Below, piece by piece: positions 2,971 to 56,011 of a stretch of 64,000 bases of DNA. A program made the position numbers and the translations under genes. The stretch's first letter is position 1; every line of letters begins with the position of its first letter. The notes under the pieces were generated by a model. That model saw nothing but the letters and a program-made list of their open reading frames with translations. It was not told where the DNA came from and ran no database searches. The stretch comes from Corynebacterium occultum (GTDB taxonomy: Bacteria; Actinomycetota; Actinomycetes; Mycobacteriales; Mycobacteriaceae). The DNA lies in NCBI RefSeq assembly GCF_009734425.1, contig NZ_CP046456.1, positions 1-64,000 on the forward strand. The letters run 5' to 3'.

Positions 2971-4307
<1,337 letters not shown>

Positions 4308-6223: not shown

Positions 6224-6258
6224 GAATTTATGAACGGAAAAGGAAGGAGGCGTAACAC

Positions 6259-6537
6259 ATGACCGATCTCGATTCCGCCCTGGAGAAACTCCGGGAGCAG
6301 AATGAATTTCTCCAACGCCAGGTGCGACATCTAGAACGTGAAGTCGCCGCGATGAGACCCGTCATCGCTGAAGTTCGCAGGCTCAGAATCTGGGATTTTG
6401 CCCCCTATGAGGTATCTCCCGATGAATCGTGGCTCGCGCTGGATCGACACAGCGCCACCACCCTGATGCAGGCGCTGGCCGGCAACGACCACTGGCATCC
6501 ATGGACATCCAGCCTTGATCCGAGGCCACAGCCATGA
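6259..6537 (+). CDS. Small N-terminal coiled-coil protein within the aniline-type cluster
   Basis: A 92-residue protein with a strong ribosome binding site (GGAGG eight bases before ATG 6259). Residues 4-35 form an obvious heptad coiled coil rich in E, L, R and Q. The C-terminal half is aromatic (IWDFAPYE, HWHPWTSS) with no known domain and no transmembrane segment. The stop overlaps the amidotransferase start (ATGA), so it is a co-translated member of the operon. I do not recognise it, and it has no counterpart in the Gram-negative atd/tdn/tad clusters as I know them. It might be an assembly or adaptor factor for the ligase, amidotransferase or oxygenase; that is speculation. Confidence 0.75.
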   Translation: MTDLDSALEKLREQNEFLQRQVRHLEREVAAMRPVIAEVRRLRIWDFAPYEVSPDESWLALDRHSATTLMQALAGNDHWHPWTSSLDPRPQP

Positions 6538-7268
6538 CACCGACGCCAACGAAGCAGGTTACCCTGCTGATCACCCATAATCCCGACCCGGATATCGACC
6601 AGGTGTGTCAGATACTAGACAACCGGAAAAAGACTTGGCGCCATATTCAACCTTTCGCGGGGGATAAACTTCCAAATCTGCATGAGGTTTCCCAGGTGAT
6701 CTGCTTCGGCGGGCCATACGCGGCCTATGACCAAGACCGGTTCCCCTTTCTGCGGGAAGAGGCCCAGTTTCTGCGCGACGCCGTGGATGCTGACATCCCG
6801 GTGCTCGGAATCTGCCTTGGTTCGCAGATCCTCGCTGAGGCACTCGGTGGCACATCCCGGCCGGGTGATCACGGTTTGGAATGCGGGTTCGTCGATGTCG
6901 TCCCCGTAGCTGGTCAAGAAGACGTGGCCCACCAACTCACCGGACGATATTTTTCCTTCCACACCGACAGCATTGATTTACCCCCCGGAGCAGAATTGCT
7001 GGCAGTGTCGCAGCGGTACCCGCAAGCCTGGCGACAGGGAAGCGCGCTGGCCATCCAGTTTCACCCCGAAATGTCCGTCACAGGTATCCGAGAACTGCTC
7101 CGTATTGAAAAGGTCAAAATCCGTCAGCACGGCATCAACGTGGAAAATCTCATGGCTGAAGCGGAAAACAACCGGGCGCTTCTCCAGCAAGGGGCCGAAA
7201 AGGTCATCGGCGGCTGGATAGACCACGCCGACGCACGGGCACCGGTGCATACCGGTGAATCTCCATAG
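6534..7268 (+). CDS. Class I glutamine amidotransferase-like protein (AtdA2/TdnT type)
   Basis: A 244-residue GATase1 domain. The nucleophile elbow is GICLGSQ with Cys94, and the His177/Glu179 pair lies in FHPEM, so the triad is complete. In known aniline clusters the equivalent protein (AtdA2, TdnT) hydrolyses gamma-glutamylanilide or tunes its level while the AtdA1 ligase makes it. The start overlaps the coiled-coil gene by four bases. The 120-base gap to the ligase is the largest in this part of the run. A stand-alone GMP-synthase-like domain is the generic alternative, but context favours an aniline-pathway role. Confidence 0.8.
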   Translation: MTPTPTKQVTLLITHNPDPDIDQVCQILDNRKKTWRHIQPFAGDKLPNLHEVSQVICFGGPYAAYDQDRFPFLREEAQFLRDAVDADIPVLGICLGSQILAEALGGTSRPGDHGLECGFVDVVPVAGQEDVAHQLTGRYFSFHTDSIDLPPGAELLAVSQRYPQAWRQGSALAIQFHPEMSVTGIRELLRIEKVKIRQHGINVENLMAEAENNRALLQQGAEKVIGGWIDHADARAPVHTGESP

Positions 7269-7388
7269 CCCGGTAGCGCACTTTGTGAAGATACCCGCAC
7301 ATCAGCGCCCATCTGGCCCTCGAGCACTTCCCTCACCAACCCCCACTCTGATCCCAAAATTATCCCGTCCACATTTCAAGGAGAGATC

Positions 7389-8900
7389 ATGACCACCACA
7401 CAGACCCCCGTGTACGCCCCGAAGTTCATCGAGAAGTACGACCTCTACACCCCCGTCCAGCAGGAAGCCGCAGAGCGCAGCCTGCGACGGATCGAAACTG
7501 ATGGCATCGAGGTCATCCGCATCGTCTGGCCTGATCAGCATGGTTTGCTGCGCGGAAAGTCCCTCACCAGGGACGCCTATGCGGCCGCGCTCAAAGCCGG
7601 CAATGACATCACCATGGCTCCTTTCTTCTTCGACCCGGCCAACGCCATCGTGCTCAACCCCTTCAGCGCAGACGGTGGTTTCACCGTCGAGGGACTGCGC
7701 GGCAGCCCCAATGTGAAAATGGTCCCGGACCCGGTCACCTTCCGGGTGCTTCCCTGGGCCCCGGAAACCGCGGTGGTCATCAGCGACCTCTACATGAGCA
7801 ACGGCGAGCTCTTCCCATTCGCTCCGCGCTCCATCCTGAAGCAGTCACTGCAGAAAATGGCGGACGCCGGCTACGGATTAATCGCTGGAATCGAGATGGA
7901 ATGGTATCTCACCAAACTCATCGATAACATGCTGGAAACCGGATCTCTGGGGGCACCGGGAACCCCGGCTGATCCCCCTCGCGTGGCACCGGTTGCCCGA
8001 GGCTACAGCTACCTGCTCACCGATCACCTCGACGAAATCGACGACATCCTCCGGCCGATCCGCAAGGCCATCGAAGACATGGGGATGCCGCTTCGTTCCA
8101 TGGATGACGAGTGGGCGCCCAGCCAGGTGGAGACAACCTTCGACATCCTGGAAGCCTTGGCTGCAGCGGACGCCGCAGTACTGTTCCGCATGGCTGTCAA
8201 ACAGATCGCCAAGCGCAATGGGCATATCGCGTCCTTCATGTGCACCCCGGCCATCGAGGGCTTCTATGCCAGCGGCTGGCACCTGCACACCTCGGTGGTC
8301 GATCTTGTCACAGGAGAAAACCTCATGGTCCCGGGTGAGGGAGAGGCGCTCTCTGAGCTGGGACGCCACTATGTCGGCGGAACGCTCGCCCACGGCATCG
8401 CAGCTTCCACCTTCACCACTCCCACCATCAACGGCTACCGACGCCGCCGCCCCTACTCTCTGGCCCCAGACCGACTGACCTGGGCCATGGACAACCGAGC
8501 GTCCATGATGCGGGTTATCTCCTCACCCCACGATCAGGCCTCCCATGTGGAAAACCGGGTCGGAGACTCAGCGGCGAACCCGTATCTCTACATTGCTTCG
8601 CAGGCTGTAGCCGGCCTGGATGGAATCCTCAACCGGATTGAGCCGGGAGTCATGGCCGAGGACCCCTACGCGGAGGACGTCCCGCAACTCCCGGACACCC
8701 TGGAGGCTTCCCTCGACCTGCTGGAGAAGGACACCTTCTTCCGTAAGGAGTTCGGCGATGCCTTTATCGACTACATCGTCACGATGAAACGCAGCGAGGT
8801 CAACCGCTACAACGAGTGGTTAAGCAATAATCCGGATGCCTCCACCTATGTCAACGGTGTCACCGACTGGGAACACCGCGAGTACTTCGAGCTGTTCTAA
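7389..8900 (+). CDS. Glutamine-synthetase-like gamma-glutamylanilide synthase (AtdA1/TdnQ type)
   Basis: A 503-residue type I glutamine-synthetase-fold ligase. It has the N-terminal beta-grasp region (EVIRIVWPDQHGLLRGKSL), the glutamate/metal-site block IEMEWYLT, the HLHTSV histidine segment, and an arginine-rich phosphate/ADP block around NGYRRRRPYS with NRASMMRV. AAGGAGAG precedes ATG 7389. In aniline degraders this family joins glutamate to the aromatic amine with ATP, giving gamma-glutamylanilide as the oxygenase substrate. The cluster context supports this over true nitrogen assimilation. A role on alkylamines (IpuC type) is the alternative but fits less well beside catA. Confidence 0.85.
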   Translation: MTTTQTPVYAPKFIEKYDLYTPVQQEAAERSLRRIETDGIEVIRIVWPDQHGLLRGKSLTRDAYAAALKAGNDITMAPFFFDPANAIVLNPFSADGGFTVEGLRGSPNVKMVPDPVTFRVLPWAPETAVVISDLYMSNGELFPFAPRSILKQSLQKMADAGYGLIAGIEMEWYLTKLIDNMLETGSLGAPGTPADPPRVAPVARGYSYLLTDHLDEIDDILRPIRKAIEDMGMPLRSMDDEWAPSQVETTFDILEALAAADAAVLFRMAVKQIAKRNGHIASFMCTPAIEGFYASGWHLHTSVVDLVTGENLMVPGEGEALSELGRHYVGGTLAHGIAASTFTTPTINGYRRRRPYSLAPDRLTWAMDNRASMMRVISSPHDQASHVENRVGDSAANPYLYIASQAVAGLDGILNRIEPGVMAEDPYAEDVPQLPDTLEASLDLLEKDTFFRKEFGDAFIDYIVTMKRSEVNRYNEWLSNNPDASTYVNGVTDWEHREYFELF

Positions 8901-8973
8901 ACCCTCCCCCAGGAAGGACCGGATCCGGCAAGGTCTGGTCCTCCCGGCACCTCGAACTGAAAGTAGGCCCCTC

Positions 8974-9294
8974 ATGCCCGCCATTCGACTTCAATCCCCT
9001 GACGGACGAAGCCACACAGTGGAAGCCCGGCCAGGCGCATCCGTGATGGAAACCGCCGTGAAGCACGGTGTGCCTGGCATCGTCGCCGAATGCGGCGGTG
9101 GACTGTCCTGTGCCACCTGCCATGTGTATGTCTCTCCGGAGTTTTTGGAGAAGACGGGAATCGCGGAAGATTTCGAGGATGAAATGCTCGATGACACGGT
9201 CTCCGAACGCCAGGCCAACAGCCGTCTCTCCTGCCAGATCCGTATGACCGATGAGCTCGACGGGCTCGAAGTCACTATCGCCCCGGAGCAATAA
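8974..9294 (+). CDS. [2Fe-2S] ferredoxin of the dioxygenase system
   Basis: A 106-residue putidaredoxin/adrenodoxin-type ferredoxin. The cluster ligands are Cys40, Cys46 and Cys49 (AECGGGLSCATC) and Cys87 (RLSCQI). The frame is open further upstream, but ATG 8974 gives the normal family length. It ends one base before the reductase start (ATG 9296). It should pass electrons from the reductase to the Rieske oxygenase. The classical aniline systems use a single-polypeptide reductase (AtdA5/TdnB), so a separate vertebrate-type ferredoxin is a difference. Confidence 0.88.
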   Translation: MPAIRLQSPDGRSHTVEARPGASVMETAVKHGVPGIVAECGGGLSCATCHVYVSPEFLEKTGIAEDFEDEMLDDTVSERQANSRLSCQIRMTDELDGLEVTIAPEQ

Positions 9295-9295
9295 C

Positions 9296-10576
9296 ATGAC
9301 CACACTCACGACCGGTACCCTGATCATCGGGGGCGGTGAGGCGGCTTTACATACCGCCGTGGCCCTGCGGGCCCAAGGTTACGACGCCGGCATCATGATC
9401 GCAGCGGAAGAACCGTACTCCCCTTATCAACGCCCTCCGCTCTCTAAGGCCTTTCTGACCGGAGAGGCTGATGAATACAGCCTCCAGCTGCGGGCGGATG
9501 ACTACTACCTGGATAACCACATAGATCTCCGGACCGGCAGCCGCATCACCGAAGTGAACATCACAGCCCGCGGCCAGGGGGAGGCGGTTACCCAGGACGG
9601 GGACACCATCACCTTTGCCAAAGTCGTACTCGCAACCGGTGCCACACCTCGACACCTGACCATCCCCGGTGCCGAAGCCGAGGGTGTGGTGTATCTGCGT
9701 GACATTGACAGTGCTCGTCAGCTCAGTCGGGGACTCGGGGAGGCCCGGAAGGTGGTAGTCATCGGCGGTGGATTCATCGGCCTGGAAGCCGCCGCGGCGG
9801 CTCGGATGAGGGGCATAGAAGTCACCATCCTGGAAGCTGGAGAGTGCCTCCTTGGCCGGGTGGCGGCTCCCCCCATCTCGGAGTTTTACCGGCAGGCGCA
9901 CGAAAACCGCGGCGCCACCGTCATGACCGGAGCAGCGGTAACCGAGATTGCCGTCGGCGAGGAAGGCGAGGTCACCGGAGTTATTCTGGCTGATGGGCAG
10001 GAAATCCCCGCTGATCTGGTTGTGGTGGGAATCGGTGTGATCCCCAACACCGCCTTAGCGCAGCAGCTCAACCTTGAGTGCCAACGAGGCATCCTCGTCG
10101 ACCACGCGGGGCGAACCAGGCACCCAGATATTTATGCCGCAGGTGATTGCACCCAGCAACCTCACCCTTCCCTGCCGGGAGAAGTGGTGTGTGTGGAATC
10201 GGTGCAAAACGCGGCAGCCCAGGGAAAGATTGTCGCTGCCTCTATCGTGGGCAATTCCTTGCCTGCCCCCCAAGTTCCCTGGTTCTGGTCAGATCAAGGA
10301 GATCTCAAGCTACAGATTGCCGGTCTATCCCACGGGTATGACGACTATGTTCTCCGAGGCGACCCGGCCACCGAATGCTTCTCCCTCCTGTACTACCGCG
10401 GAAATCGTCTGATTGCTGTCGACGCCATTAATCAGTCGCATGACTTCATGGCAGTGCGAAGAGCGCTGAGCAAGAACGCCACCATTGATCCCGAACGAGC
10501 CGGTGACACCACCGTCGCGCTCAAGACCCTCATCCAGGATGACCATGTACAAAATCGGAATACCGTCTCGGCTTAG
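9296..10576 (+). CDS. NAD(P)H:ferredoxin oxidoreductase (FAD)
   Basis: A 426-residue pyridine-nucleotide-disulfide-fold reductase of the putidaredoxin-reductase type. An FAD-binding IIGGGEAALHT is at the N-terminus, a second Rossmann glycine motif (VIGGGFIGLEAA) lies near residue 160, and YAAGDC near residue 285 closes the FAD site. The C-terminal domain contains the FWSDQ block typical of ferredoxin reductases. It pairs with the ferredoxin immediately upstream. Its last 32 bases overlap the PuuD-like gene. Confidence 0.87.
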   Translation: MTTLTTGTLIIGGGEAALHTAVALRAQGYDAGIMIAAEEPYSPYQRPPLSKAFLTGEADEYSLQLRADDYYLDNHIDLRTGSRITEVNITARGQGEAVTQDGDTITFAKVVLATGATPRHLTIPGAEAEGVVYLRDIDSARQLSRGLGEARKVVVIGGGFIGLEAAAAARMRGIEVTILEAGECLLGRVAAPPISEFYRQAHENRGATVMTGAAVTEIAVGEEGEVTGVILADGQEIPADLVVVGIGVIPNTALAQQLNLECQRGILVDHAGRTRHPDIYAAGDCTQQPHPSLPGEVVCVESVQNAAAQGKIVAASIVGNSLPAPQVPWFWSDQGDLKLQIAGLSHGYDDYVLRGDPATECFSLLYYRGNRLIAVDAINQSHDFMAVRRALSKNATIDPERAGDTTVALKTLIQDDHVQNRNTVSA

Positions 10577-23145: not shown

Positions 23146-23979
23146 TCAGGAAGCAAATCTCAGAATAGCAGGACAGCGTTCCTCGAATACGGTTGGCGCG
23201 AGATATTTACACCAGGAATGTCTCCGGGTGGTGTTATACCTGGTACACCAGCGAAACACCTCCTGACGACACAGCAACTGATTCGCAAAGGTCTTGGAAT
23301 CTTGAAGGACTTCCCGCTTCAGCGCGGCATTAAACGACTCCGCCAAGGCGTTGTCAGCACTGGTCCCGATTGATCCCATCGACTGCCTGATTCCCAGCTC
23401 GGTGCAGGTGCCCTGGAACCCGTGAGAGGTGTACACGCTCCCGTGGGCGGAATGGAACACCGCATCTTTCAGGCTGCCGCGCTGGCCCTTGGCCATGAGC
23501 AGGGCATCCTGCACCAGGGAGGTGCGCATGTGATCAGCGATCGCGAAGCCCACCAGCCGGCGAGAATAGCAATCGATTACCGTGGCCAGGTACATATTCG
23601 ACCCATCCGCAATCGGCAAATAGGTGATGTCTCCGACGTAAGTTCGGTTCGGCTTATCAGCGGTGAACTTACGGCCGACAAGGTCAGGGAACACCGTCTT
23701 GGTTTTGTCGGACACGGTGGTGGTGACCTTGCGTTTCTTCGAGTACCCAAACAGCTTCAGCGAGCGCATGATCCTCGCGACCCGCTTATGGTTGACCGGT
23801 GATCCAACTGGATCGTCGTTGAGTTCCGCGGCAATGCGTTTGGCCCCGTAACAACCGCGTTCTGCAGCAAACACGGTCTTGATCCGGGCTCCGAGAACGG
23901 CATCGCCCAGCAGGCGTTTCTTCCTGGTAGAGGCAGTGTTTTTCCATTTATAGTACGAGGACCTGTTGAGTTTGAGCAC
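23146..23979 (-). CDS. IS3 element 1 orfB (transposase catalytic part) with Asp-to-Ala change
   Basis: A DDE transposase of the rve type: helical start (VKQLCTVLKLNRSSYYKW), first Asp in YVGDITYLPI, last Glu in ADNALAESFNAALKRE. The second Asp, normally in HSDHGSVYTS, is replaced by Ala: HSAHGSVYTS near 23450 (GCC instead of GAC). Loss of this metal ligand should abolish catalysis. The frame is open upstream of ATG 23979 as RFVDDARHDHS, so natural expression probably uses a frameshift from orfA. Confidence 0.82.
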   Translation of the reverse strand: MLKLNRSSYYKWKNTASTRKKRLLGDAVLGARIKTVFAAERGCYGAKRIAAELNDDPVGSPVNHKRVARIMRSLKLFGYSKKRKVTTTVSDKTKTVFPDLVGRKFTADKPNRTYVGDITYLPIADGSNMYLATVIDCYSRRLVGFAIADHMRTSLVQDALLMAKGQRGSLKDAVFHSAHGSVYTSHGFQGTCTELGIRQSMGSIGTSADNALAESFNAALKREVLQDSKTFANQLLCRQEVFRWCTRYNTTRRHSWCKYLAPTVFEERCPAILRFAS

Positions 23980-23999
23980 CGTGCATAACTGCTTGACCG

Positions 24000-24351
24000 A
24001 GTGGTCGTGTCGGGCGTCGTCAACGAACCTTCAAGCGGATCACCAGGTCGTCTCTTGCCGGGAAAATATTTAGCCGCTTTCCGTAGAATGTCGCGCTCTT
24101 CCCGCAGGCGGGCGTTTTCCCGTTCCAGTTGGCGGATCCGCTCGGCTTCTGTCACCGAGGTCGACGAGGGTGAATCCGCGGTGGTGATGTTGGTGCGGGC
24201 TCCGGTGCCGTATTTTTTGAGCCAGTTCTGAAAGGTGTTGCGGTTGACTCCGAGGTCGTTGGCGATGGTCTGGATCGACGCGCCTGTGGAGTTCTCGTAG
24301 AGCGCGACGGCGTCGCGCTTGAACTCCTTAAGAATAGGTCTTGCTTGGCAT
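24000..24351 (-). pseudogene. IS3 element 1 orfA, frameshifted near its start
   Basis: ATG 24351 encodes MPSKTYS then a stop. One base out of frame, EFKRDAVALYENSTGAS continues with a proper helix-turn-helix and the leucine-zipper-like stretch RIRQLERENARLREERDILRK. One inserted or deleted base near 24328 explains the break. Confidence 0.75.
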
Positions 24352-24375
24352 GGTGGCAGAGTACCTTTCCCAGCA

Positions 24376-25330
24376 TCATGCTGGTGTCAGCGTCCACCAA
24401 ACACGGGTTAGGTCCAGTCCCTGGTTATTACTGTGAGGCCGGCGCCGGTTGTACCATCCCTCGATATAGTCCATCACCGCGGTCCGGGCTGACAGGTGAT
24501 TCTTAAAGTCATAATGGTGATACATTTCGGTCTTTAGGTGAGAGAAGAAATTCTCCGCCACTGCGTTATCCCAGCACACCCCAGTCACTCCCATCGACTG
24601 GGTGATCTTATTGCCCGCACACCACGTCTGAAATTCCCCGGAAGTGTATTGAGATCCTCTATCCGAGTGAAAAATTGCACCCTCGGGATGAAGACGCCCA
24701 TGATCACGGGCCATGGCCAACGCATTGATAATCAACGGTGTGCGCATATTGGAATCCATCGACCACCCCACCACCATCCGCGTGGCCAAATCGATCACGG
24801 TAGCCAAGTACAACCAACCCGAGCCTGTCTTTAAGTACGTGATGTCACCAACAAGCCTGGTCCCAGGCACGGTAGCGATAAAGTCTCGTTTCCCGTGGCT
24901 GTCGAGCATATGGTTGTTGATGTGCTCGGTGCGGGCCGCAGGATCATTGACCGTGGTGTTTTTCCAGGCACGCATCGCCCCTGGCACGCAGTCCTAATTC
25001 GTTCATAATTGCCCCCGCGGTCCCAATGGACACTTTGACACCTCGTTGGTTGAGCAACGTGGTCAGCTGATCCCTGCCAGCCATGTGGTTACTGTTTTCA
25101 AACTCCTGGGCGACCTCGTCCTTGAGCTTTAAATGCCGCGTAGCTGTGGGAGTCAGGCCCCCAGGCTTAGCCCAGCGGTAATACGATGCCCGGGATACAC
25201 CCAACTTCCTGCACATCCATGTAATAGGAAAGACGGCCTTCTCCTGCTCGATGAACGCATAGAAATGCATCTCACAGGTGCTTCGCGGCAAAGAAGGCGC
25301 TGGCTTTTCCCCAGAACTCATTTTCTCGTT
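24376..25330 (-). pseudogene. IS3 element 2 orfB, frameshifted
   Basis: The N-terminal part encodes FPITWMCRKLGVSRASYYRW and continues to MNELGLRARG near 24975. The DDE domain (GDITYLKTGSGWLYLATV, FHSDRGSQYTS, DNAVAENFFSHLKTEM) is one frame over, beginning at RAWKNTTVNDPAARTEH. The shift falls at a run of four G (minus strand) near 24978. All three catalytic acids are present, so only the frameshift disables it. Confidence 0.78.
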
Positions 25331-25438
25331 TCAACGCAGCTTTTTCTGCCTGCAGGGCCTTGTATTTCGCCCATTCAACTGGGCCTGGTTCATCCACACC
25401 AGCATCAGGGTGTTCAGTTTTCCAGGCTCTCACCCACG
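25275..25438 (-). pseudogene. IS3 element 2 orfA, 3' part
   Basis: Encodes VRAWKTEHPDAGV to ENEFWGKASAFFAAKHL, the zipper end of an IS3 OrfA. Its 5' part is at 28089-28217 on the far side of the IS21-family insertion. Confidence 0.8.
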
Positions 25439-25559
25439 TGCCAGGAGCGGGTTTGTGGTCGGGGTTCTCCGATGAGGTGGTAGGGCCTGTGTCCGCGCAC
25501 ATGGTAGGGGCCGACATCGTGACTGATGCCGGCCCCAGTTGTACTCGCGACGGGATTAC

Positions 25560-26330
25560 TTAGCTGTCGTGGTCGAGGTCCTCCTGGTGCTTCTTCGCCA
25601 GGTGACGGCGCATGTCGTAGTCACCGATCTGAATACGGCGACCGTTGTTGAGCCGGCTGACCAACGAATCAGCCCCGACCCGGTTGGGTAGTACCTCCAC
25701 CCAGTACGCGGCTGACGACTGTGAAGAAATGATCGTCGGGAGTCTGCCGTCCCGGTCGATTACGATTTTGGTCAGGTCTTCTTGCCCGCGTTGGTCAATG
25801 CTCAAGGTGAGAAAGTCGTCGATGATGAGGACATCGACATTCATCAACTTTTTCATCGCATCGGCATATCCCGGATCCGTCGGCGAGTGGACCGCCAGCT
25901 TTGCCACCAGCTGATCCAGCCGGTAGTACGCCACTGAAAACCCGGCCTGACAGGCAGCGATCCCGATGGCGCAGGCAATGTAGGTCTTGCCGGCGCCGGC
26001 GGGCGCGAATAGGTGCACATTCGTCGGATTCTCCCGCCAGTTGGTCGCGGCGACGCGCTTGAGCTGGCGTTCATTGATGCCTCGCTCTGCCGCGTTGACC
26101 AACTCACCCAGACTGGCCTGCGGATAACGGAAATGCGCCTGCGTGATGGCTGTGGCGATGTTGCGTTCACGTCGCTGGGCGTCGGTGGCGTCCACGGCAC
26201 GCAGGAAAATCTCTTCGGGCAAGGCGTCGGCGTGCTCGTCGCTGGTGACCAGGTCGAAGAAGTTCTCCGCGAACCGCGACAGACGCAGCGACCGGAGTTT
26301 TCTACGGGTCGTCTCATCGATATCGATCAT
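25560..26330 (-). CDS. istB: IstB-type AAA+ ATPase of the IS21-family element
   Basis: A 256-residue transposition helper ATPase that remodels target DNA for IstA. Walker A is APAGAGKTYIA, Walker B is VDVLIIDDFL, and sensor-like SSQSS follows. The N-terminal helical domain matches IstB. It starts just after the istA stop. The frame is intact. Confidence 0.88.
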   Translation of the reverse strand: MIDIDETTRRKLRSLRLSRFAENFFDLVTSDEHADALPEEIFLRAVDATDAQRRERNIATAITQAHFRYPQASLGELVNAAERGINERQLKRVAATNWRENPTNVHLFAPAGAGKTYIACAIGIAACQAGFSVAYYRLDQLVAKLAVHSPTDPGYADAMKKLMNVDVLIIDDFLTLSIDQRGQEDLTKIVIDRDGRLPTIISSQSSAAYWVEVLPNRVGADSLVSRLNNGRRIQIGDYDMRRHLAKKHQEDLDHDS

Positions 26331-26333
26331 GAG

Positions 26334-27933
26334 CTACTTGCCCTCCTGATCATCATCGAAATGACTGGTTGGGCGGATAAACACTGCATCAGACAACCGG
26401 GACAGATCCACCTGCCGCGGTAAGCCGGGTGTCGGTTGCGCCGTCGTGGTGGGCCGGGCGTGGGCGATGTCGGCCTGGAGTCGTTTGAGTACCGACATCG
26501 TCGGCGCCAGCTGCTTGTCCAGCAGCTGCGCACAGGCCGGTTCCAGGGTGGTCTTGTCGTGCTTGCGGCCGAGGTTGGCCAGGATGTTGCGTGACAGCGT
26601 CAGTCCCCGGGGCACACTCGCTCGGTTGCGGTCCAGGATCATGGTGATCACCGTGATCGTTGCTGGCCCGAAGGATCCTGCCCACGCCAGGAGCTCATCA
26701 CGGGTGAGCACGTTGTGGGCGTCGGTGTCCCCGGATGGGCCGTGGGTGACATCGGTGCTGTAGCGGTAGCGGAACCCGTGCATGCGGGTGTGTTCTGCCA
26801 CGAGCCGGTCACCGTCGAAGATGCTGACCAGATCTGTGGTCAGCCGTGCCCGCAGAGTCTTGCCCACCAGCGCAAACGGCACCGAGTAGTACTGGTAATC
26901 GCAGCTGATATGCCAGTTGCGGTCGACTTTCGCACTGCGCCAGGACACCTCTGTAAACGCCATACGGGGAAGATCACGCATCATCGGCGCTTCATCCTCG
27001 TTGAAGCGCTGTCGGCGGGTGGACCCGTCCGGGCGGGTCATGACGTCGTTGATGTCTGCCAGGCGCTCGGCGATGGCTTCGTTGAGCTCGTCCAGAGTGT
27101 AGAACTGTTCACCGTGGAAGTAACCCAGGATGCGGGTGTAAGCGATCTGCACGGCCCGTTCCACCGCGGCCTTGTCCCTCGGCTTGGCGGGTCTGGTTGG
27201 GACGACTGTGATGTCGTAGTAGTCGGCGAAGTCCGCGTACCGGCTGGTGGTCGCCCGGTAGGAGGAGTTCTTCTTCGGCTGGTAGGTCGCCGTCGACGCG
27301 TTGTCGGGGACGATGACCGCGGGTAGTTTGCCGAGGTAGTTCAGAGCCTTAACGTGGCAGTCGATCCAGGCGCCCATCTTTTCGTTCGCGGCTGCGACCG
27401 TGAACATCAATCCTAAGTCAGGGGCACACGCCGATGAACAGGGACGCTTTGAACCCCACCCGGCCGGTGGCCTGGTCGTAGATGGTGATCTTGTCGCCGG
27501 CCCAGTCGACGTAGAATTCCTGCCCGGGCTCGTGTTCGACGACATCGACGAGGTCGTTGGCCTTCAGATACTCGGCCAGACCGTCGCAGAACTGGGAGTA
27601 CTGATACTTCAACAGGCCATCAGCACTGGGGGCGGCCAGGTAGTCCATCCACAGCTTGTGCCTGGTCAGATGCTTGTCATCGGTGAGCTTTTTAGCCAGT
27701 GCCTGGAAGTTCGGCTGGTCGTAGCTCATCGATCGTCGGCCGCGTTGGTCGGTGAAGGTCTCATCGAAAAACGCCGGCGGCAGCTGGGTGAAGCTGTCTG
27801 GGGTGATGTTGTGGTCGTCGATGACGGTCTGGACGCGGGCGATGTCCCGATTCGAGCAGCCCAGAGCTGCTGCGATGTAGGAGTAGCTGCGGTTGTTCAG
27901 GCGTAGGGCCATGATCTCTTTGAATTGAGCCAT
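26334..27933 (-). pseudogene. istA: istA-type transposase, frameshifted
   Basis: From ATG 27933 the protein starts MAQFKEIMALRLNNRSYSYI (helix-turn-helix) and runs into the first catalytic region (EFYVDWAGDKITIYD). It meets a stop after LFIGVCP near 27419. One frame over it continues DLGLMFTVAAANEKMGAW through the second acidic block (AVIVPDNAS) and DKAAVERAVQ to the stop at 26334. A single-base shift in a CCCC run near 27422 explains this. The element probably cannot move by itself. Confidence 0.85.
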
Positions 27934-28088
27934 GGGAGGTGTCTCCTTGGTGTGAAACCGTGTCGCAGCCCTGCGAGTTGCAGGCACTGCCACCAAGAAG
28001 ATTCCCGCAAAAGCACCGGCGCTACCGGGTATGTGGAAAGGGCCTACCAACTACGCGGACCTCCCCGACCAACAACCCCGAAATGGCA

Positions 28089-28697: not shown

Positions 28698-30770
28698 CTA
28701 GTCTGGGGATGCTTTTTCTCCCCCAGGAGCTTTGGCGACAGCAAAATCCCGTCGGTTTTTCCAACTCAGATCATATTCATCCACGTTACTTCTCGGGGTA
28801 CTGGACCAAGAAGGATCAGCGTCAGGAACGATCTCATCAAAGGCTTCCCTATTGAAATCGTGCAGCTTGGTCACAGTCTGTTCACCCCCCAAGGAGCGTG
28901 AGTAAGTGACACAGCGTGCTGCGACGTCCTCCACGGTGAAGGCGCCTTCAGCCAACCCTGCCCTGAGCGGCTCCACAAGAAACTCCTGCTGCTTCCATTC
29001 CCGCAGGACAAAGATCATGAACTCCACCTGATCATCTAACGAAGCCTCGTCCTGATCTCGGAGATTGCTCATAATGACCTCCACGAGGTGCTGACACACT
29101 TGGTCCAGCACCTCGTCCACCCAGCGGTGATGCCCGTTGTACAACAGCATGAACTGGAGAATGTGAACCTGATCGAGGTGATGCGGGGAAAGATTCAGCG
29201 CGTCGACCAGCTTGGAAACCTCAACATCATCGCTTAGCCGAGACAGCATTTTCCCCGACCACTCTCTAATCCTCTTGTCTGCGCTGAGCAATGCGGTATC
29301 GTGCCGCGAAAGGCTTCCCAGGAGGGGGATGATAGTACGCAGAACCGCCAGACGTTCAGCATCCTCCCCCAGGAGGTCAGTGCTGGTTTCTGCCTTGTCG
29401 ATGGCCATAGAGATGCGGTTGGAATCCTCATCCAGGAGCAGCTCCTTGAGTGGGCTTTCGTTGCCGTCTGCAGCAGCAGTAATCGCGTTCGCTACAGCCG
29501 TATCAGAAATATCATGAGCGGGAACTCCCATGGCAAAGTAACGGTCAAAATAGCGCTTGTCGTAGATGCTCCTTTCCTCTGGGCGTGAGAAATAGTAGCT
29601 TCTCTTTCCCCTGACGCCGGGAAATAGCTCTTCCAGAAGCGTTCGGGCATCCGGGCACTCTTGAGGTGGGATCCCGTCAAAAAGCGGATCAGGATCAAAG
29701 GTCTTGCGGTCGGCATCATAAAATCCGCGTCCCAGTCCATCCTGCATGCCTGTGATCAGTTGGTCCTTATAGCGTGGTAGCTGGTTGTAGAGGGAAGGGA
29801 AGCTAGTCTTGAGTAACGTCACGACGATGACGTCTTCTACCTGGACTTCCTGTGAATCAAACATCGCTAGGTGATGCCGGACCTGAGCGATGTAGCGGTC
29901 AATGGCACGAGGCGTCGACAGCTGAGAGAGTAAAACCCTGCGTAGTCCCTGGAGACGCATCGCAAACATCTCCGGCTGCTCAAGGCGGGTAATAAAAGGT
30001 TCTAGGCCTTCATCGATCCGGGTCCTGAGCTGGGTCGGCACCAGTGGCGGGATGGCCAAAGGATATTGAACGATCTTCTCCAGAAACTTTCTGCCCGCGG
30101 CAGTCCCTTTTCCGGCGATGCCGGTCTCAGATAGTGTTTCAGTCACCGTCTGTTCGTCGTAGGCCAGCAGGAAATGAACACCGGGAAAACGACCCAGCAG
30201 CCTGACCACCTTCAACAGGGCTAATAACTCCTCTCCATGAAGGCGATCAATGTCATCAGCGATGACGAGAACCGGAATATCTAAATTCTTGAGCTCGTCT
30301 GATGCTTCCTTGAAAGCCTGACTCCAGGAGGGTTGCTTCTGCAGCCTTTCACCTGCTTTTTCTGCGGCCATGGCCGCGGCATCGCCAAACAAGGGAATCA
30401 TTTTGGCCGCAGGAGCTGAGATCTGCAGAATGGTTCCTAATTTTTCTCGAAGATCCTTACCGCGCTCTGAAGGGAGTGCACTACTCAGTGAAGCGTAGAA
30501 GTCCCCCAAGAGGCCATTGATATCACTGGTAGCCCAGGGGGTAAACCTCGCGATATGCCATTCGTTCTCGCTGGATGTTAGTTGTTCCTCGATCATCGCC
30601 AGCATCGAGCTTTTCCCACTACCCCATGGCCCGGTCAAGCCGAAGACAATACTGTCCTCCCAGGAATGGGCACCCTGAACAAGATGGGCGATTTGCTTGG
30701 CGTATGGGCTCCGTCCAAACGAATCCTCATCCGCAGACTTGATCGGTGCATCGCTCCATATCGTGGGCAT
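28698..30770 (-). CDS. KAP-family P-loop NTPase (candidate defence protein)
   Basis: A 690-residue KAP NTPase. Walker A is GPWGSGKSS (residues 47-55), the Walker B region is VLVIADDIDRL (about 168-178), and the TPWATSD block between them is typical of the family. No membrane segments are evident, unlike many KAP proteins, so it is probably cytoplasmic. The C-terminal 300 residues are helical and unrecognised. ATG 30770 follows the AbiEii stop (30772) by one base, so it is the third gene of the AbiE operon. KAP NTPases occur in several phage-defence settings, but their pairing with AbiE is not one I recognise. It might supply an effector or a sensor. Confidence 0.8.
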   Translation of the reverse strand: MPTIWSDAPIKSADEDSFGRSPYAKQIAHLVQGAHSWEDSIVFGLTGPWGSGKSSMLAMIEEQLTSSENEWHIARFTPWATSDINGLLGDFYASLSSALPSERGKDLREKLGTILQISAPAAKMIPLFGDAAAMAAEKAGERLQKQPSWSQAFKEASDELKNLDIPVLVIADDIDRLHGEELLALLKVVRLLGRFPGVHFLLAYDEQTVTETLSETGIAGKGTAAGRKFLEKIVQYPLAIPPLVPTQLRTRIDEGLEPFITRLEQPEMFAMRLQGLRRVLLSQLSTPRAIDRYIAQVRHHLAMFDSQEVQVEDVIVVTLLKTSFPSLYNQLPRYKDQLITGMQDGLGRGFYDADRKTFDPDPLFDGIPPQECPDARTLLEELFPGVRGKRSYYFSRPEERSIYDKRYFDRYFAMGVPAHDISDTAVANAITAAADGNESPLKELLLDEDSNRISMAIDKAETSTDLLGEDAERLAVLRTIIPLLGSLSRHDTALLSADKRIREWSGKMLSRLSDDVEVSKLVDALNLSPHHLDQVHILQFMLLYNGHHRWVDEVLDQVCQHLVEVIMSNLRDQDEASLDDQVEFMIFVLREWKQQEFLVEPLRAGLAEGAFTVEDVAARCVTYSRSLGGEQTVTKLHDFNREAFDEIVPDADPSWSSTPRSNVDEYDLSWKNRRDFAVAKAPGGEKASPD

Positions 30771-30771
30771 C

Positions 30772-31761
30772 TTAATTCTCCTCGTGAGTACGTATGGATG
30801 GGAGTTCCCCCGAAGTCTGCCAGGATTGGGATGCCGGTCCCCAGTGTCCTGCGATGATTTCTCCTGATAGAACGGGGTTCACACATACCCCGGCATGGGA
30901 TAAAGAAGTATTCAGCTGGTGGTAGGCCACGGGGTATTCAGCGAAGTCTTTCGCTGCCCTGGGAAAATTCTCCACCCACCTCGGGGACGGGGCGTGGAGC
31001 TGTTGCGGGAGGACAATACCGCGTCGCTGCTGCTCATGACCAAGAATCTCCCGTAGCCGCGCAGCGTCGATGATAGAGGCGTTGATCAAGCGAACAATAT
31101 CGGCCAGATCGCGGTAGCGGGTGGAGGGTTCCTCCTTGTTCCGTCCGTGGAGCTCATACATCGCGCAGATTTTATCGGCCAGGTGATTTTCCACCGCCAC
31201 CACCGGGATGTCGGGCAAATCAGCCAGGGTTTCATGCTCAATTACCGGAGACAGCGGGAGCATGTCGACGGGCCCGTGGTCATGGCGGCGATTGGTGATG
31301 TCGATGAGGAAAGTGTCAAAGATCCGGTTGCCCAGCCAAACTGTCACGGTGATCTTCGCGGTTTTCGAGCCGTATCCAAAGCTGTCGGGATCAGAGTGCG
31401 GGTCGATATCTCCCAGCTCGAATCGGAACGGATCGGACGCAGTCCCCGCATTGACCAGTACTTGGAGTTCTTCTTTCACTGGGGCGGGATCCTCCCAGGT
31501 GGTACCTCGAGCCAGGTCGATATCCCGGGTGAAGCGCCCACCGCCGGCACGAATCAACAGGGCGTTTCCACCCAACAGCATCCAGTTGCCCTCATCGCCA
31601 TGAAAGAGGCGCTTGAAGAATAAGGCGAAGACGTACTGTTTACGCACCAGCTGCGGATCCACGCCTTTGCTGCGGGCAACGGTGGTGATCTTGGTGGACA
31701 GGATTTTGCGCAGGCGCTGGAGGTTCTGCCGATTCTGGTTCTCGTCTACGTCATGTATCAT
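30772..31761 (-). CDS. AbiEii-type nucleotidyltransferase toxin
   Basis: A 329-residue member of the AbiEii/AbiGii toxin family. The nucleotidyltransferase core is GGNALLIRAGGGRFTRDIDLA (residues about 62-82), with a second conserved block VENHLADKICAMYELHGRN. Type IV toxins of this kind transfer nucleotides to tRNA or bind GTP and stop growth on phage infection. ATG 31761 lies 11 bases inside the AbiEi end, so the pair is coupled. All motif residues are present. Confidence 0.85.
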   Translation of the reverse strand: MIHDVDENQNRQNLQRLRKILSTKITTVARSKGVDPQLVRKQYVFALFFKRLFHGDEGNWMLLGGNALLIRAGGGRFTRDIDLARGTTWEDPAPVKEELQVLVNAGTASDPFRFELGDIDPHSDPDSFGYGSKTAKITVTVWLGNRIFDTFLIDITNRRHDHGPVDMLPLSPVIEHETLADLPDIPVVAVENHLADKICAMYELHGRNKEEPSTRYRDLADIVRLINASIIDAARLREILGHEQQRRGIVLPQQLHAPSPRWVENFPRAAKDFAEYPVAYHQLNTSLSHAGVCVNPVLSGEIIAGHWGPASQSWQTSGELPSIRTHEEN

Positions 31762-32581
31762 GGTCAGTCCGGTTTTCTTCTTTCTTGAGTTCTGCAGCGC
31801 GCGCCGGAGACAGGAGGTCGCCCTTGGCCATAGCGCCGGTGGCCTGCTGGAGAAAGTGATCAACATCGGGGTTCACCAGGTCGGCGTGCAGCTGCCGGGT
31901 AAGAAACTCCCACGCCTTGGTGACCGTGGGGTCTTTAGACGGGGCATAGCCGGCATGGCCCAGAAGTGAGTGGACCAGTTCCCGGCTGTTGGCAGCGCCA
32001 TAGTCACCGAGGTGGGGAAACAACCGTTCCGCCAGCTCATCGGTAGAAACGTGGTGATCTTCCACCGCATCACGCACCACAGTGGCCAGGTGATCGAAAT
32101 CTATCGCCTGAGCAGCCAGATCCCCGACTGTCCGGGCGACAGAGGTCACCGGGAGCCCCTCCACCCAGGTGATATCCCCCGCGGGCACCTCGCACCGGTG
32201 GAAGCGCAGATCCTGCTGAGTGGTCTGCCGACGAGCCGGTGAGGAAAACTCATGACGGGCCGCGAGCAGATCCCCCAAGCCATGCACACCAGCGGCTGAT
32301 ACATGAGAAACCACCACCGGATCCTCGGCCTCGACACGATTTTCCGCAGGGGACGAGGCCTCCGTGGCCAACCAGGCAGCCTGCAGATCCTGCCACGGAC
32401 CAAACCGGGCAGACGGCACGGCATAAACCCCATGACGGATGCGCTGCAACCGACCCCGGGCCCTCATCCGTGACAGCCACAATCGGTCAACGCCGAGATC
32501 ACGGGCCTGCGCCGAAGTAATCAGCCCCCACTGCGACGAGCCAAACATTTCCAGCTCTTCCAACACAGTCACTTCGTCCAT
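31751..32581 (-). CDS. AbiEi-type antitoxin and autorepressor
   Basis: A 276-residue protein whose N-terminus is a winged helix of the AbiEi_4 type (SQWGLITSAQARDLGVDRLW, then GRLQRIRHGVYAV, residues about 17-56). The C-terminal part is of the antitoxin type (VEGLPVTSVARTVGDLA). ATG 32581 has AGGAGG five bases upstream; a GTG two codons earlier is in frame but overlaps that site. AbiEi proteins neutralise AbiEii and repress their own operon by binding inverted repeats; such a repeat lies 60 bases upstream. Confidence 0.85.
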   Translation of the reverse strand: MDEVTVLEELEMFGSSQWGLITSAQARDLGVDRLWLSRMRARGRLQRIRHGVYAVPSARFGPWQDLQAAWLATEASSPAENRVEAEDPVVVSHVSAAGVHGLGDLLAARHEFSSPARRQTTQQDLRFHRCEVPAGDITWVEGLPVTSVARTVGDLAAQAIDFDHLATVVRDAVEDHHVSTDELAERLFPHLGDYGAANSRELVHSLLGHAGYAPSKDPTVTKAWEFLTRQLHADLVNPDVDHFLQQATGAMAKGDLLSPARAAELKKEENRTDHDT

Positions 32582-32640
32582 GACCACCTCCTTAGGGGAA
32601 GCCTCTCAACATAGGAACCCAGATCATCCTGATCCACTTC

Positions 32641-32666
32641 GATTGTATCACTCAGGTGATACAATC
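32641..32666. promoter_or_regulatory. Perfect palindrome upstream of abiE operon
   Basis: GATTGTATCAC and GTGATACAATC form 11-bp perfect arms with a 4-base spacer (TCAG). The placement, 60 bases before the AbiEi start, fits an operator for that autorepressor. Confidence 0.7.
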
Positions 32667-32949: not shown

Positions 32950-33948
32950 TTAAGTCTCCGAGCCAGATTCGTCGAAGAAGACGAAAATGTTGTCAGGCTG
33001 GGGTTCGGTCTGCTCAAAGCCGAGGATCCCATCAGTCTCGACGGGCTCCCAGATCCCCGTTGGGCTGAGGTCGGGAACAGAAGTGAGGAAATTTCTCTCT
33101 TCAACGTCGATGCTGTGGTAAGAAAGCTCAGCATCGGAGGCGTATCCGGCACTGGCACGCGCATCCTGAGCTCGTTCACAGAGAAAAACGTATTCGCTGA
33201 AGACGCCAAAGCCATTAGGGAAGTGTGCGGTGCCCGCAAAGGAATGAATCGCTAGCTCACCAGAGGTGGCCACACTGATTCCACTCTTGAACTCGGGAAT
33301 TTTTGCACTCGCCGAAAACTTGGCATGGCTCAGGACCGAATCGAAACACTCTTGCTTGGCTTGATCATGAACGGCGAGAATCTCTTTAAAATTACCCGTG
33401 GTGCTCAAATGGTGGCCGTAACTATCGCCGGATGGGATGCTTGCACCGATAACCGAGGCCAGAGAGATCAGTGCAGGTAGCCACAAGAATCGCTTGATCC
33501 GCTGGCCGGTCTTAGGCAGCCTGATTTTGTCGATGATTTCGCAGGTGAAGAACCAGATCGCGGGAACGAGGAAAACCAGAGCAGTTAATATGCTGCCAAG
33601 AAAATCGCTCTTTGTCGCGGTATAGGCTGGATCGAAGGCCGTAGCAATACCAGCCACTCCGAAAATGAGTAGGGCTAACGCGAGGACGTACTTGATGACA
33701 GTAAGGACTTTATTTCGAGGCTTAGGTGGCTCAAAAACTGTCGCATTAGGGTTCCCGAGGGTGGAAGCGCCAGGTTCCTGTCTAGGGTGTGTCGGACCAT
33801 ATCCAAACCCTGTCATCTCAGACTGTCCTGCAGCAGGGTAAACGTCGGCCATGTTTTTCTGCTCCCTGGAGCCGGGAAAGGCTACGTTCTCGTCGATGGG
33901 GTGGGAGGGGGAGGAGCTTCCAGGCTCCTGAGGCCGCATGCCGGTCAT
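32950..33948 (-). CDS. Membrane protein of unknown function, 332 aa
   Basis: A low-complexity, Pro- and Gly-rich N-terminus (about 80 residues) is followed by three membrane segments (VLTVIKYVLALALLIFGVAG, FLGSILTALVFLVPAIWFF and WLPALISLASVIGA). A soluble acidic C-terminal domain of about 150 residues follows. A later start (MADVYPAAG) is possible. It lies upstream of the AbiE operon on the same strand, 369 bases away, with the palindrome between, so it is probably a separate transcript. Function unknown. Confidence 0.65.
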   Translation of the reverse strand: MTGMRPQEPGSSSPSHPIDENVAFPGSREQKNMADVYPAAGQSEMTGFGYGPTHPRQEPGASTLGNPNATVFEPPKPRNKVLTVIKYVLALALLIFGVAGIATAFDPAYTATKSDFLGSILTALVFLVPAIWFFTCEIIDKIRLPKTGQRIKRFLWLPALISLASVIGASIPSGDSYGHHLSTTGNFKEILAVHDQAKQECFDSVLSHAKFSASAKIPEFKSGISVATSGELAIHSFAGTAHFPNGFGVFSEYVFLCERAQDARASAGYASDAELSYHSIDVEERNFLTSVPDLSPTGIWEPVETDGILGFEQTEPQPDNIFVFFDESGSET

Positions 33949-53526: not shown

Positions 53527-53583
53527 TAATCTTACATGTGGTGCAGATCACGCCTACGTGAACCGGATATGGAAGGTCTCAAT

Positions 53584-54984
53584 ATGACCACTGACTCAGT
53601 GAGACAGCGCAGTATCTCTGAAGTTATTGAATCTGCCGGAATTACTAGACGGCACTGGCTTTATTTCACGCTCATTTTTCTTCTGCTCTTGGCGGATGGC
53701 ATGGACTCCACCATCGTCAGTCATATTTTTCCCTCGCTCATTAAAGAATGGGGAGTTTCTGTCGGCGGCGGCATTGCATTGATAGTGTCCGGAGGTTTCG
53801 TAGCCATGGGACTCGGGTCGCTGGTGGCGGGCCGCCTAGCGGATCAGCTGGGCCGTAAACCTGTCCTCGTGGCGGCAGGGTTCATTCTTTCCGCGATGAC
53901 AATTTTGGGGGGTACTGCAGAAAATTTCACCATGTTCACCATATGGCGCTTTATTGCGTGCGTGGGAATCGGAGCTGTCCTGCCGACTGCTGTGACGCTT
54001 CTGGCGGATCTGGTTCCACAAAAGCGTCGCGGTGCTATGGTGGCTGCCTCCTATGCGGGGTTGGGTTTGGGCACTACTGTCGGCGCCACCCTGGCCGGCG
54101 CCATCCTTCCCGCCGAAGGCTGGCGGGTGCTTATGTTCGTTGGTGGCGCGATTCCCCTGATAATCACGGTTTTGATTTGGATCGGAATCCCTGAATCGCC
54201 CACTCTTCTGGCGGCCCGCGGCTCAACGAACCGGGCCAGACGTTCTCTCGTCCAGATCTTTCCCCGGGTTAATCCGGACGAGGTTGACCTCACTGCATCT
54301 GTAGTAAAAAAACAGCAATCAGCAACCTTCCAGCGGTTACTTTCTCAGCCCTATACCTGGACCAGTGTGTTGCTGTGGGTATTTGGTTTCCTTTCCCTGG
54401 GCACGCAGTTGCTGATCATCCAGTATCTTCCCACTCTTCTGCAGATGCCGAGCCCGGGACTCACGACAGTCGAAAGTAGTACAATCGTCGCTGTGTATGG
54501 CTTCGCCAGTGTGGCGAGCCTCCTGCTCCTCGGAGCAGTTCTCGCCAAATGGCAGCGGTTTGGGGTCATCGCTGCGTGCTTGGCAGTGTCTGCGATCGTC
54601 GCTGTGGCAGTGAGTCTGGTGAGTGACGCTGGATTCGTCACCTTGTTGATTGTGTTGGGTGTGACAGGTTTCTTCGTTCCGGCGGCGCTCGGGCCCACAC
54701 GAAATGTTCTTGCGGTGGAGGCCTACCCCACCGACATGCGCGCAACCGGTGTCGGTATTACTGAACTCAGTGCCCGGCTAGGGTCAGCCGGTCAGGGTGC
54801 ACTCGGAGGTGTACTCATCGGCGGGGGCCTGGGATTGGGCGGATTCTTCTTGGCTTTGCTTGTTCCGCTGGGAATTCTCGGCGCGGCACTGGCCGGATTG
54901 AAGGCGTTGCACCGTCCGCAAGAAACTTCTGATCCTGAACAGGAACCCATTGCGGTGCCTGAAAGCTTGCTACCTCAGACCTAG
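53584..54984 (+). CDS. MFS transporter, aromatic acid:H+ symporter type
   Basis: A 466-residue transporter with 12 membrane segments. The AAHS-type motifs are visible: LADGMDSTIVSHIFPSL in segment 1, then AGRLADQLGRKPVL between segments 2 and 3, and IGAVLPTAVTLLADLVPQKRRG. GGAAGG seven bases before ATG 53584 decides the start over the earlier 53569. Probably imports the aromatic substrate of the downstream cluster, a benzoate- or hydroxycinnamate-like acid. It is preceded by a TetR-type palindrome. Confidence 0.85.
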   Translation: MTTDSVRQRSISEVIESAGITRRHWLYFTLIFLLLLADGMDSTIVSHIFPSLIKEWGVSVGGGIALIVSGGFVAMGLGSLVAGRLADQLGRKPVLVAAGFILSAMTILGGTAENFTMFTIWRFIACVGIGAVLPTAVTLLADLVPQKRRGAMVAASYAGLGLGTTVGATLAGAILPAEGWRVLMFVGGAIPLIITVLIWIGIPESPTLLAARGSTNRARRSLVQIFPRVNPDEVDLTASVVKKQQSATFQRLLSQPYTWTSVLLWVFGFLSLGTQLLIIQYLPTLLQMPSPGLTTVESSTIVAVYGFASVASLLLLGAVLAKWQRFGVIAACLAVSAIVAVAVSLVSDAGFVTLLIVLGVTGFFVPAALGPTRNVLAVEAYPTDMRATGVGITELSARLGSAGQGALGGVLIGGGLGLGGFFLALLVPLGILGAALAGLKALHRPQETSDPEQEPIAVPESLLPQT

Positions 54985-55109
54985 TGTTGCGAACTGTCTT
55001 TTCTCGCCGACACCAGCCAAATGGATCACCCCGCCCACAGAAAAGGGAAAGAGCTGGTTTCCTCTTCCCTGCCCTACAGAAGAAGAGCGGAGTTAACACA
55101 TTATAGGTT

Positions 55110-55147
55110 AGGAGCTTCCCCACTCTGCCCGGGTGGGGAAGGCTCCT
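55110..55147 (+). terminator. Terminator after the MFS gene
   Basis: Arms AGGAG-CTTCCCCAC and GTGGGGAAG-GCTCCT pair around a short loop, with one bulge. It lies 125 bases beyond the MFS stop and is followed by the convergent TetR gene. Confidence 0.5.
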
Positions 55148-55973: not shown

Positions 55974-55994
55974 GATTTGAGGCTATCCTTCCCG

Positions 55995-56011
55995 CGTTTC
56001 GATACGAAACG
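55995..56011. promoter_or_regulatory. Operator-like palindrome near the TetR start
   Basis: CGTTTCG-ATA-CGAAACG, 7-bp perfect arms with a 3-base centre. It contains one GATACGAAACG half of the better site at 56058. Likely autoregulation. Confidence 0.55.

What the first reader, a model, noticed from the sequence alone, without database searches (positions are those of the whole stretch)
28698..32666. AbiEi-AbiEii-KAP NTPase operon: possible composite phage-defence system
AbiEi and AbiEii overlap by 11 bases and the KAP NTPase starts one base after AbiEii. All nucleotide-binding motifs are intact. AbiE is normally a two-gene system; a tightly coupled 690-aa KAP ATPase as third gene is not an arrangement I recognise. 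It could sense phage or modulate the toxin.
Basis: partly seen in the sequence, partly recalled or inferred. Interest (0 to 1): 0.7.

Follow-up and report, generated by a model that had tools for sequence, protein, structure and literature searches.

The report
AbiE toxin-antitoxin operon with PifA-like ATPase
A Corynebacterium plasmid carries an ordinary AbiE toxin-antitoxin pair with a third gene joined to it, an ATPase related to the phage-exclusion protein PifA of plasmid F; it looks like two defence modules under one switch, and no second copy of this three-gene operon was seen.

Summary
The anatomy is real. On the minus strand: AbiEi (31751-32581), AbiEii (30772-31761, 11-base overlap), then a 690-aa KAP ATPase (28698-30770) starting one base after the AbiEii stop, its ribosome site inside the last AbiEii codons. 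A perfect 26-base palindrome (32641-32666), unique in the genome, precedes AbiEi; its core recurs before two other corynebacterial AbiE pairs, so one AbiEi-controlled promoter probably drives all three. The contig is a 109-kb plasmid. AbiEii models as a MenT3-type nucleotidyltransferase; KAP is a distant PifA homologue. In plasmid F, pifA likewise starts one base after its repressor gene pifC. The three-gene order was found in none of 120 other distinct KAP loci, nor in another genome of the genus (242 searched). A wider AbiE model did find AbiE genes beside KAP in four loci, never in this order: tail-to-tail in two mycobacteria, head-to-head in one genome, and a same-strand AbiEi fragment after KAP in one. 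That is at most a weak excess over chance. Two other AbiEii proteins share the tail that encodes the KAP ribosome site, a hint of relatives. Best reading: two abortive modules sharing one switch, not a proven three-part machine. New variant of a known kind; moderate interest.

The parts
32641..32666 (-). Putative AbiEi operator: perfect inverted repeat, 11-base arms with a 4-base spacer (GATTGTATCAC-CTGA-GTGATACAATC); an extended -10-like TGATACAAT lies in one arm
   Evidence: one of two palindromes in the window with arms of 10 or more and spacer up to 8; 3 of 5000 first-order Markov versions of the leader gave an arm of 11 or more; the pattern occurs at one place in the 3.2-Mb genome; core TTGTATC-N8/9-GATACAA also precedes AbiE in G057 and G027. 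The promoter reading is inference; the standard scan lists no promoter here.
31751..32581 (-). AbiEi antitoxin and predicted repressor, 276 aa (GTG 32587 is an alternative start)
   Evidence: PF13338 6e-12, PF09407 9.8e-5; PADLOC AbiEi 1.6e-86; AAGGAGG before the ATG
30772..31761 (-). AbiEii nucleotidyltransferase toxin, 329 aa, with an 11-residue C-terminal tail (ELPSIRTHEEN)
30771..30783 (-). KAP ribosome-binding site GAGGAG encoded by AbiEii codons, then AAT, stop TAA and one base before the KAP ATG
28698..30770 (-). PifA-like KAP NTPase, 690 aa; hydrophobic, poorly predicted stretch around residues 111-141 between Walker A and Walker B

Best explanation
A plasmid-borne three-gene operon in which a PifA-like KAP ATPase has been captured behind a standard AbiE toxin-antitoxin pair and put under AbiEi control. 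Steps: (1) AbiEi binds the palindrome over the promoter and keeps the operon low (inferred from the site and from work on other AbiE systems). (2) When repression is relieved, for instance when AbiEi is lost after host shut-off, AbiEii and KAP are made together; KAP is translated from a ribosome site inside the end of abiEii and is probably coupled to it (sequence shown, coupling inferred). (3) AbiEii, with a MenT3 fold, modifies tRNAs and stops growth (fold predicted, activity inferred). (4) KAP acts on its own, like F PifA: a nucleotide-driven, probably oligomeric ATPase that is triggered by a phage product and ends the infection by a membrane lesion (homology shown, function inferred). In effect the plasmid stacks two abortive modules on one autoregulated switch, as F places pifA behind pifC.
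For: Gene order and spacing. Palindrome unique in the genome, core shared with two other AbiE leaders. KAP homologous to F PifA (PADLOC PifA 206 bits, a model that gives F PifA 963 bits; BLASTP 23% over 366 aa, E 1e-18; hhalign 99.2% over 413 columns). In F the gene after pifC starts one base behind it, TAA-T-ATG; the same spacing on E. coli plasmid pEC14III. Each module exists without the other: KAP without AbiE on C. efficiens pCE3; of the 6 of 242 genus genomes with KAP, 5 are not this one, and 4 of those 5 have no AbiEii at E 1e-6 while G118 has one about 115 kb away; of the 34 of 242 with AbiEii, none but this one has KAP next to it. KAP genes elsewhere follow varied regulators, restriction genes and, once, a RES toxin pair. 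AbiEii-MenT3 fold. Plasmid markers: MobF relaxase and ParA relatives.
Against: No expression or phage data; coupling and repression are read from sequence. F PifA and this protein share only about 23% identity, over the N-terminal half, so trigger and killing mode may differ. The BASEL authors themselves suggest that PifA may not have evolved mainly as an immunity system (PMC8594841, passages). The tail shared with two other AbiEii proteins, and AbiE genes beside KAP in four further loci, would also fit a selected partnership. A palindrome was found in only 4 of the 18 AbiE leaders scanned.
Confidence: 0.55

Rival explanations
1. True three-component system: the KAP ATPase senses infection and releases or activates the AbiEii toxin, in the way RADAR pairs the ATPase RdrA with an effector.
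Confidence: 0.18
2. Chance neighbours: KAP landed behind AbiE by plasmid recombination, is expressed only as a passenger, and has no selected link to AbiE.
For: IS3- and IS21-type genes lie directly downstream. GC3 of KAP (0.60) is below AbiEi and AbiEii (0.67, 0.68). No second operon of this order found. The four other AbiE-KAP neighbourhoods are few: 2 independent AbiEii cases against about 0.3-0.5 expected in 1.05 Mb of flanks, P of 2 or more 0.03-0.08.
Against: Close fit of ribosome site, stop and start; open frame with conserved ATPase motifs; tail shared by two other AbiEii proteins that are only 80-82% identical.
Confidence: 0.2
3. The operon serves plasmid maintenance, with AbiE as an addiction module and KAP acting against incoming plasmids or phages that compete with the host plasmid.
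For: Location on a plasmid with MobF and ParA relatives; 133 of 72,556 plasmid records carry a KAP relative, while 0 of 50,697 phage records do, though 17 distant ones turned up in viral contigs.
Against: No direct evidence; PifA itself is studied as a phage-exclusion protein.
Confidence: 0.05

Closest known systems
AbiE (AbiEi-AbiEii), type IV toxin-antitoxin family
   Same: Both genes, their order and overlap, an operator-like palindrome before AbiEi, MenT3-type toxin fold
   Different: A third gene is joined; AbiEii carries an extra 11-residue tail that encodes the next gene's ribosome site
F-plasmid pifC-pifA phage exclusion operon
   Same: PifA-family KAP ATPase one base behind an upstream gene, on a plasmid, with a repressor (known or predicted) at the head of the operon
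   Different: PifC is replaced by AbiEi plus AbiEii, with no detectable similarity between PifC and AbiEi; KAP only 23% identical to PifA
Xre-RES toxin pair followed by KAP on Rhodococcus sp. USK13 plasmid pUSK13_1
   Same: Toxin-antitoxin pair followed on the same strand by a PifA-like KAP gene
   Different: Unrelated toxin pair; 54 bases between toxin stop and KAP start
AbiE beside PifA-like KAP in Mycobacterium sp. NS-7484 (L078)
   Same: AbiEi, AbiEii and a KAP gene within 4 kb
   Different: Tail-to-tail, 134 bases apart, so not one operon; AbiE of another subfamily; a second AbiEi-like gene next to it
Serratia marcescens operon of a KAP NTPase with an 'AbiEii-related' ATPase (PMC6192313)
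   Same: A KAP NTPase in an operon with a gene named after AbiEii (passage)
   Different: [quoted passage not shown] not a nucleotidyltransferase with AbiEi. It resembles QatABCD (recalled)
QatA of the QatABCD system
   Same: KAP-type ATPase (PADLOC QatA 1.9e-14; NCBIfam QatA 59.9 bits)
   Different: Far below the NCBIfam cutoff of 600 bits
RdrA of RADAR
   Same: Closest solved fold to the KAP model
   Different: 11-13% identity; AAA+ fold resemblance only

Membership tests
AbiE type IV toxin-antitoxin | AbiEi: winged-helix antitoxin upstream | tested here: met
   PF13338 6e-12; PADLOC AbiEi 1.6e-86
AbiE type IV toxin-antitoxin | AbiEii: DNA polymerase beta-like nucleotidyltransferase with its conserved motifs | tested here: met
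   [not shown]
AbiE type IV toxin-antitoxin | AbiEi represses its own promoter through an inverted repeat | tested here: inconclusive
   A palindrome with a partly conserved core is present; binding not testable here
AbiE type IV toxin-antitoxin | Toxicity of AbiEii, rescue by AbiEi, phage protection | not testable with these tools
   Needs expression assays
KAP family NTPase | PF07693 domain with intact Walker A and Walker B | tested here: met
   4.5e-60; motif residues conserved in 43 aligned proteins
KAP family NTPase | Membrane-spanning insert inside the P-loop domain | tested here: inconclusive
   Hydrophobic small-residue stretch at 111-141, 19-residue hydropathy about 1.1-1.2, pLDDT under 50 at 121-141; below a clear membrane helix. 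The feature is in the title of Aravind 2004, seen as a reference
PifA | Homology to F PifA | tested here: met
   206 bits to PADLOC PifA over residues 5-509 (the F protein 963 bits); hhalign 99.2%
PifA | Exclusion of a phage through a phage protein trigger | not testable with these tools
   Needs phage challenge
QatABCD | QatA equivalog score | tested here: not met
   59.9 bits against a cutoff of 600
Conserved AbiEi-AbiEii-KAP operon as a system of its own | Recurrence of the same gene order in independent genomes | tested here: not met
   0 of 120 other distinct KAP loci with flanks up to 6 kb; only this genome in the genus, phylum and family searches. Metagenome contigs were not searchable
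Co-location of AbiE and PifA-like KAP in any orientation | More often than chance | tested here: inconclusive
   4 of 120 loci (L078, L079, L045, L219/L147), L078 and L079 being the same site; 2 independent AbiEii cases against 0.3-0.5 expected

The most novel reading that the evidence does not exclude
A tripartite AbiE: a PifA-like KAP ATPase senses infection and controls release or activity of the AbiEii tRNA toxin, with AbiEi as repressor of all three. PifA-like ATPases would then be portable sensors that can be joined to different toxin pairs (AbiE here, RES-Xre in Rhodococcus).
Probability: 0.15. Interest if true: 0.8.

Novelty: new variant of a known kind. Interest (0 to 1): 0.4.

Why it matters
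What triggers AbiE during infection, and how PifA-type KAP ATPases kill, are both poorly understood. An operon that puts the two under one switch gives a compact test object for both, and suggests that plasmids assemble defence stacks by placing a PifA-like gene behind whatever autoregulated module they carry (PifC, AbiE, RES-Xre).

Tried and rejected
Conserved triad: searched and not found in the same order. The first survey used an AbiEii profile of this subfamily (A2) and a single AbiEi, and gave only one 18-bit hit (L078). None has the window's order. The A2-based counts therefore see only part of the AbiEii family: PF08843 matches 136 of 296 phylum genomes against 30 of 396 with A2.

AbiEii-KAP fusion proteins: none with both Pfam domains among the 120 of 775 KAP homologues listed.

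Contig-length comparison to link KAP and AbiE proteins of unnamed sources (119 KAP, 120 AbiEii and 120 AbiEi lengths typed from the listings; one KAP row had no length). Shared lengths were the window's own contig, two contigs too short to hold both genes (2334, 2894), and one chromosome (Luteipulveratus mongoliensis, P0098 and P0337) where the distance is unknown. A cluster's longest contig may belong to another member, so the test is weak both ways. The contig of P0123 (20624, shared with AbiEi P0244) has no KAP in the list, which speaks against a close KAP there.

Corynebacterium sp. A21 (AbiEii P0122, 87% identical) lacks the tail; its genome was not seen.

QatA membership: not met. RdrA fold match was not taken as membership.

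Viral contigs: 17 distant KAP loci and 2 distant AbiEii loci, with no trio.

Foldseek searches 'pdb' and 'viral' for the KAP model could not be run; the 'pdb_via' second look was used. Single-sequence searches matched no PDB chain; the A2 profile matched AbiGII 9hlo (8.3e-7).

Papers: no AbiEi-AbiEii-KAP operon was seen in the listings (open-licence PMC only). The one paper close to it, PMC6192313 (passages), concerns an ABC-type ATPase called AbiEii-related. Seen as passages: PMC10286901, PMC8594841, PMC10435456, PMC6458302; PMC7725324 as passages (54, 118) and section 24 (97). Supplements were not read.
Full report
What is there. On the minus strand the window holds AbiEi (31751-32581 from the ATG behind AAGGAGG), AbiEii (30772-31761) and a KAP ATPase (28698-30770). 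AbiEi and AbiEii overlap by 11 bases; a single base separates the AbiEii stop from the KAP ATG. The KAP ribosome site GAGGAG is made of the codons for the Glu-Glu before the last AbiEii residue (...HEEN, stop). Family assignments: AbiEi (PF13338 6e-12; PADLOC 1.6e-86), AbiEii (PF08843 1.1e-20; PADLOC 5.1e-82), KAP (PF07693 4.5e-60). The next ORF upstream (32950-33948) matched no Pfam, PADLOC or NCBIfam family at the limits used, and IS3- and IS21-type genes lie downstream.

Control element. Upstream of AbiEi is a perfect palindrome with 11-base arms at 32641-32666. Only one other palindrome with arms of 10 or more (spacer up to 8) exists in the window, and 3 of 5000 Markov versions of the leader gave an equal arm. 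Its pattern TTGTATC-N8..10-GATACAA occurs at one place in the genome. The core also stands before the AbiE pairs of two other Corynebacterium genomes, G057 (AbiEii 69% identical) and G027 (36%). In one search AbiEi was located in 18 of 20 regions, the window included; the palindrome scan reported a site in 4 of those 18, of which three share this core, so most AbiE leaders showed none. The consensus scan lists no promoter here; the promoter over the palindrome is my reading.

Where it lies. The genome has two contigs; contig 2 is 108,872 bases. It encodes relatives of MobF relaxase and ParA, so I take it as a plasmid. The genus is Corynebacterium: one same-genus hit (G042) has the same KAP coordinates and identity as C. 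efficiens plasmid pCE3.

Is the trio conserved? In the genus, KAP relatives (E 1e-10) occur in 6 of 242 genomes and AbiEii relatives (E 1e-6) in 34 of 242; only the window's genome has them together, and G118 has both about 115 kb apart. In a phylum sample KAP occurs in 7 of 396; AbiEii of this subfamily in 30 of 396. In the family of G588 the counts are 1 and 10 of 50. With the plasmid, viral and genome-search loci this makes 123 KAP loci besides the window, 120 distinct, with 1.05 Mb of flanks. The order AbiEi-AbiEii-KAP occurs in none of them.

A result against simple absence. My first profile was too narrow. Wider profiles and Pfam show AbiE genes beside KAP in four loci: Mycobacterium sp. 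NS-7484 (L078: AbiEi and AbiEii, tail-to-tail with KAP, 134 bases apart), Mycobacterium sp. GA-1841 (L079: same site, AbiE in pieces), genome G461 (L219: AbiEi-AbiEii head-to-head with a KAP frame that is broken in two), and a Quadrisphaera bin (L045: an AbiEi N-terminus on the KAP strand about 100 bases after KAP, at the contig end). PF08843 matches 136 of 296 phylum genomes, 328 matches in all; for genomes of 2.5-4 Mb that predicts 0.3-0.5 AbiEii in the flanks. Two independent AbiEii cases (P 0.03-0.08), or three loci if L078 and L079 count apart (P 0.003-0.012), is a weak excess, as expected of genes that cluster with other defence genes. It lowers the chance-neighbour rival a little (from 0.22 to 0.20) and leaves the other odds as they were.

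KAP elsewhere. Of 133 plasmid records with a KAP relative I opened 12 regions, plus plasmid F; none shows an annotated AbiE next to KAP, while Gordonia JH63 has both about 8 kb apart. One search took 120 loci with a KAP hit: 77 had a same-strand ORF just upstream, 33 had none, 5 were too near an edge, and 5 were dropped for lack of a Walker A match. Of the 77, 44 were scanned: HTH and S24-type regulators, restriction genes, a NACHT protein and a RES toxin appear, with no AbiE among the 25 of 31 families shown. On Rhodococcus plasmid pUSK13_1 an Xre-RES pair is followed by KAP at 54 bases. So KAP is a portable gene that is sometimes placed behind a regulator or a toxin pair.

Verdict. The most economical account is a plasmid operon that stacks two abortive modules, AbiE and a PifA-like ATPase, under AbiEi control. 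A genuine three-part machine remains possible; the shared tail is its best support, but nothing shows that KAP and AbiEii act together. The decisive data are metagenomic contigs across the junction and single-gene deletions under phage challenge.

Noticed in passing
L204 (Rhodococcus sp. USK13 plasmid pUSK13_1), 1630-5070: Xre antitoxin, RES toxin and a PifA-like KAP gene in a row on one strand, 54 bases between toxin and KAP: a second toxin-pair-plus-KAP arrangement.
   Followed up: partly
L078, 5854-10725: Mycobacterium sp. NS-7484: PifA-like KAP tail-to-tail with AbiEi-AbiEii, and a second AbiEi-like gene behind them; L079 has the same site with AbiE in pieces.
   Followed up: partly
L219, 1409-5064: Genome G461: AbiEi-AbiEii head-to-head with a KAP gene whose frame is broken into two pieces.
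   Followed up: partly
L045, 8202-8460: Quadrisphaera bin: AbiEi N-terminus on the KAP strand about 100 bases after KAP, cut by the contig end; whether AbiEii follows is unknown.
   Followed up: partly
L194 (G000 contig 1, 208000-221000), frames 5003-6010 and 6010-6924: The same genome has a second, divergent AbiE pair on the chromosome (AbiEii 30% identical), without KAP.
   Followed up: partly
L210 (Serratia marcescens plasmid), 1-6752: KAP gene two bases behind an unnamed 356-aa gene and beside a RES NAD+ phosphorylase on the other strand; further upstream an annotated nucleotidyltransferase (not named AbiEii) and an S-4TM pore-forming effector: a defence-like cluster.
   Followed up: no
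window 57843-57888: Perfect inverted repeat with 20-base arms and a 6-base spacer in a gap between ORFs; possibly a terminator.
   Followed up: no
window 23757-28050: IS3- and IS21-type transposase genes packed directly downstream of the operon; some appear to be split over two ORFs.
   Followed up: no
window 4122-10576 and 53536-63061: Catabolic-looking genes: Rieske oxygenase, ferredoxin reductase-like, glutamine synthetase-like, aldehyde dehydrogenase, thiolase and FAD-binding monooxygenase-like genes, suggesting a degradative plasmid.
   Followed up: no
plasmid NZ_CP047236.1 (Gordonia sp. JH63), record positions 99200-110242; KAP part in L003: AbiEii and a PifA-like KAP on one plasmid about 8 kb apart, with transposases just upstream of KAP.
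   Followed up: partly
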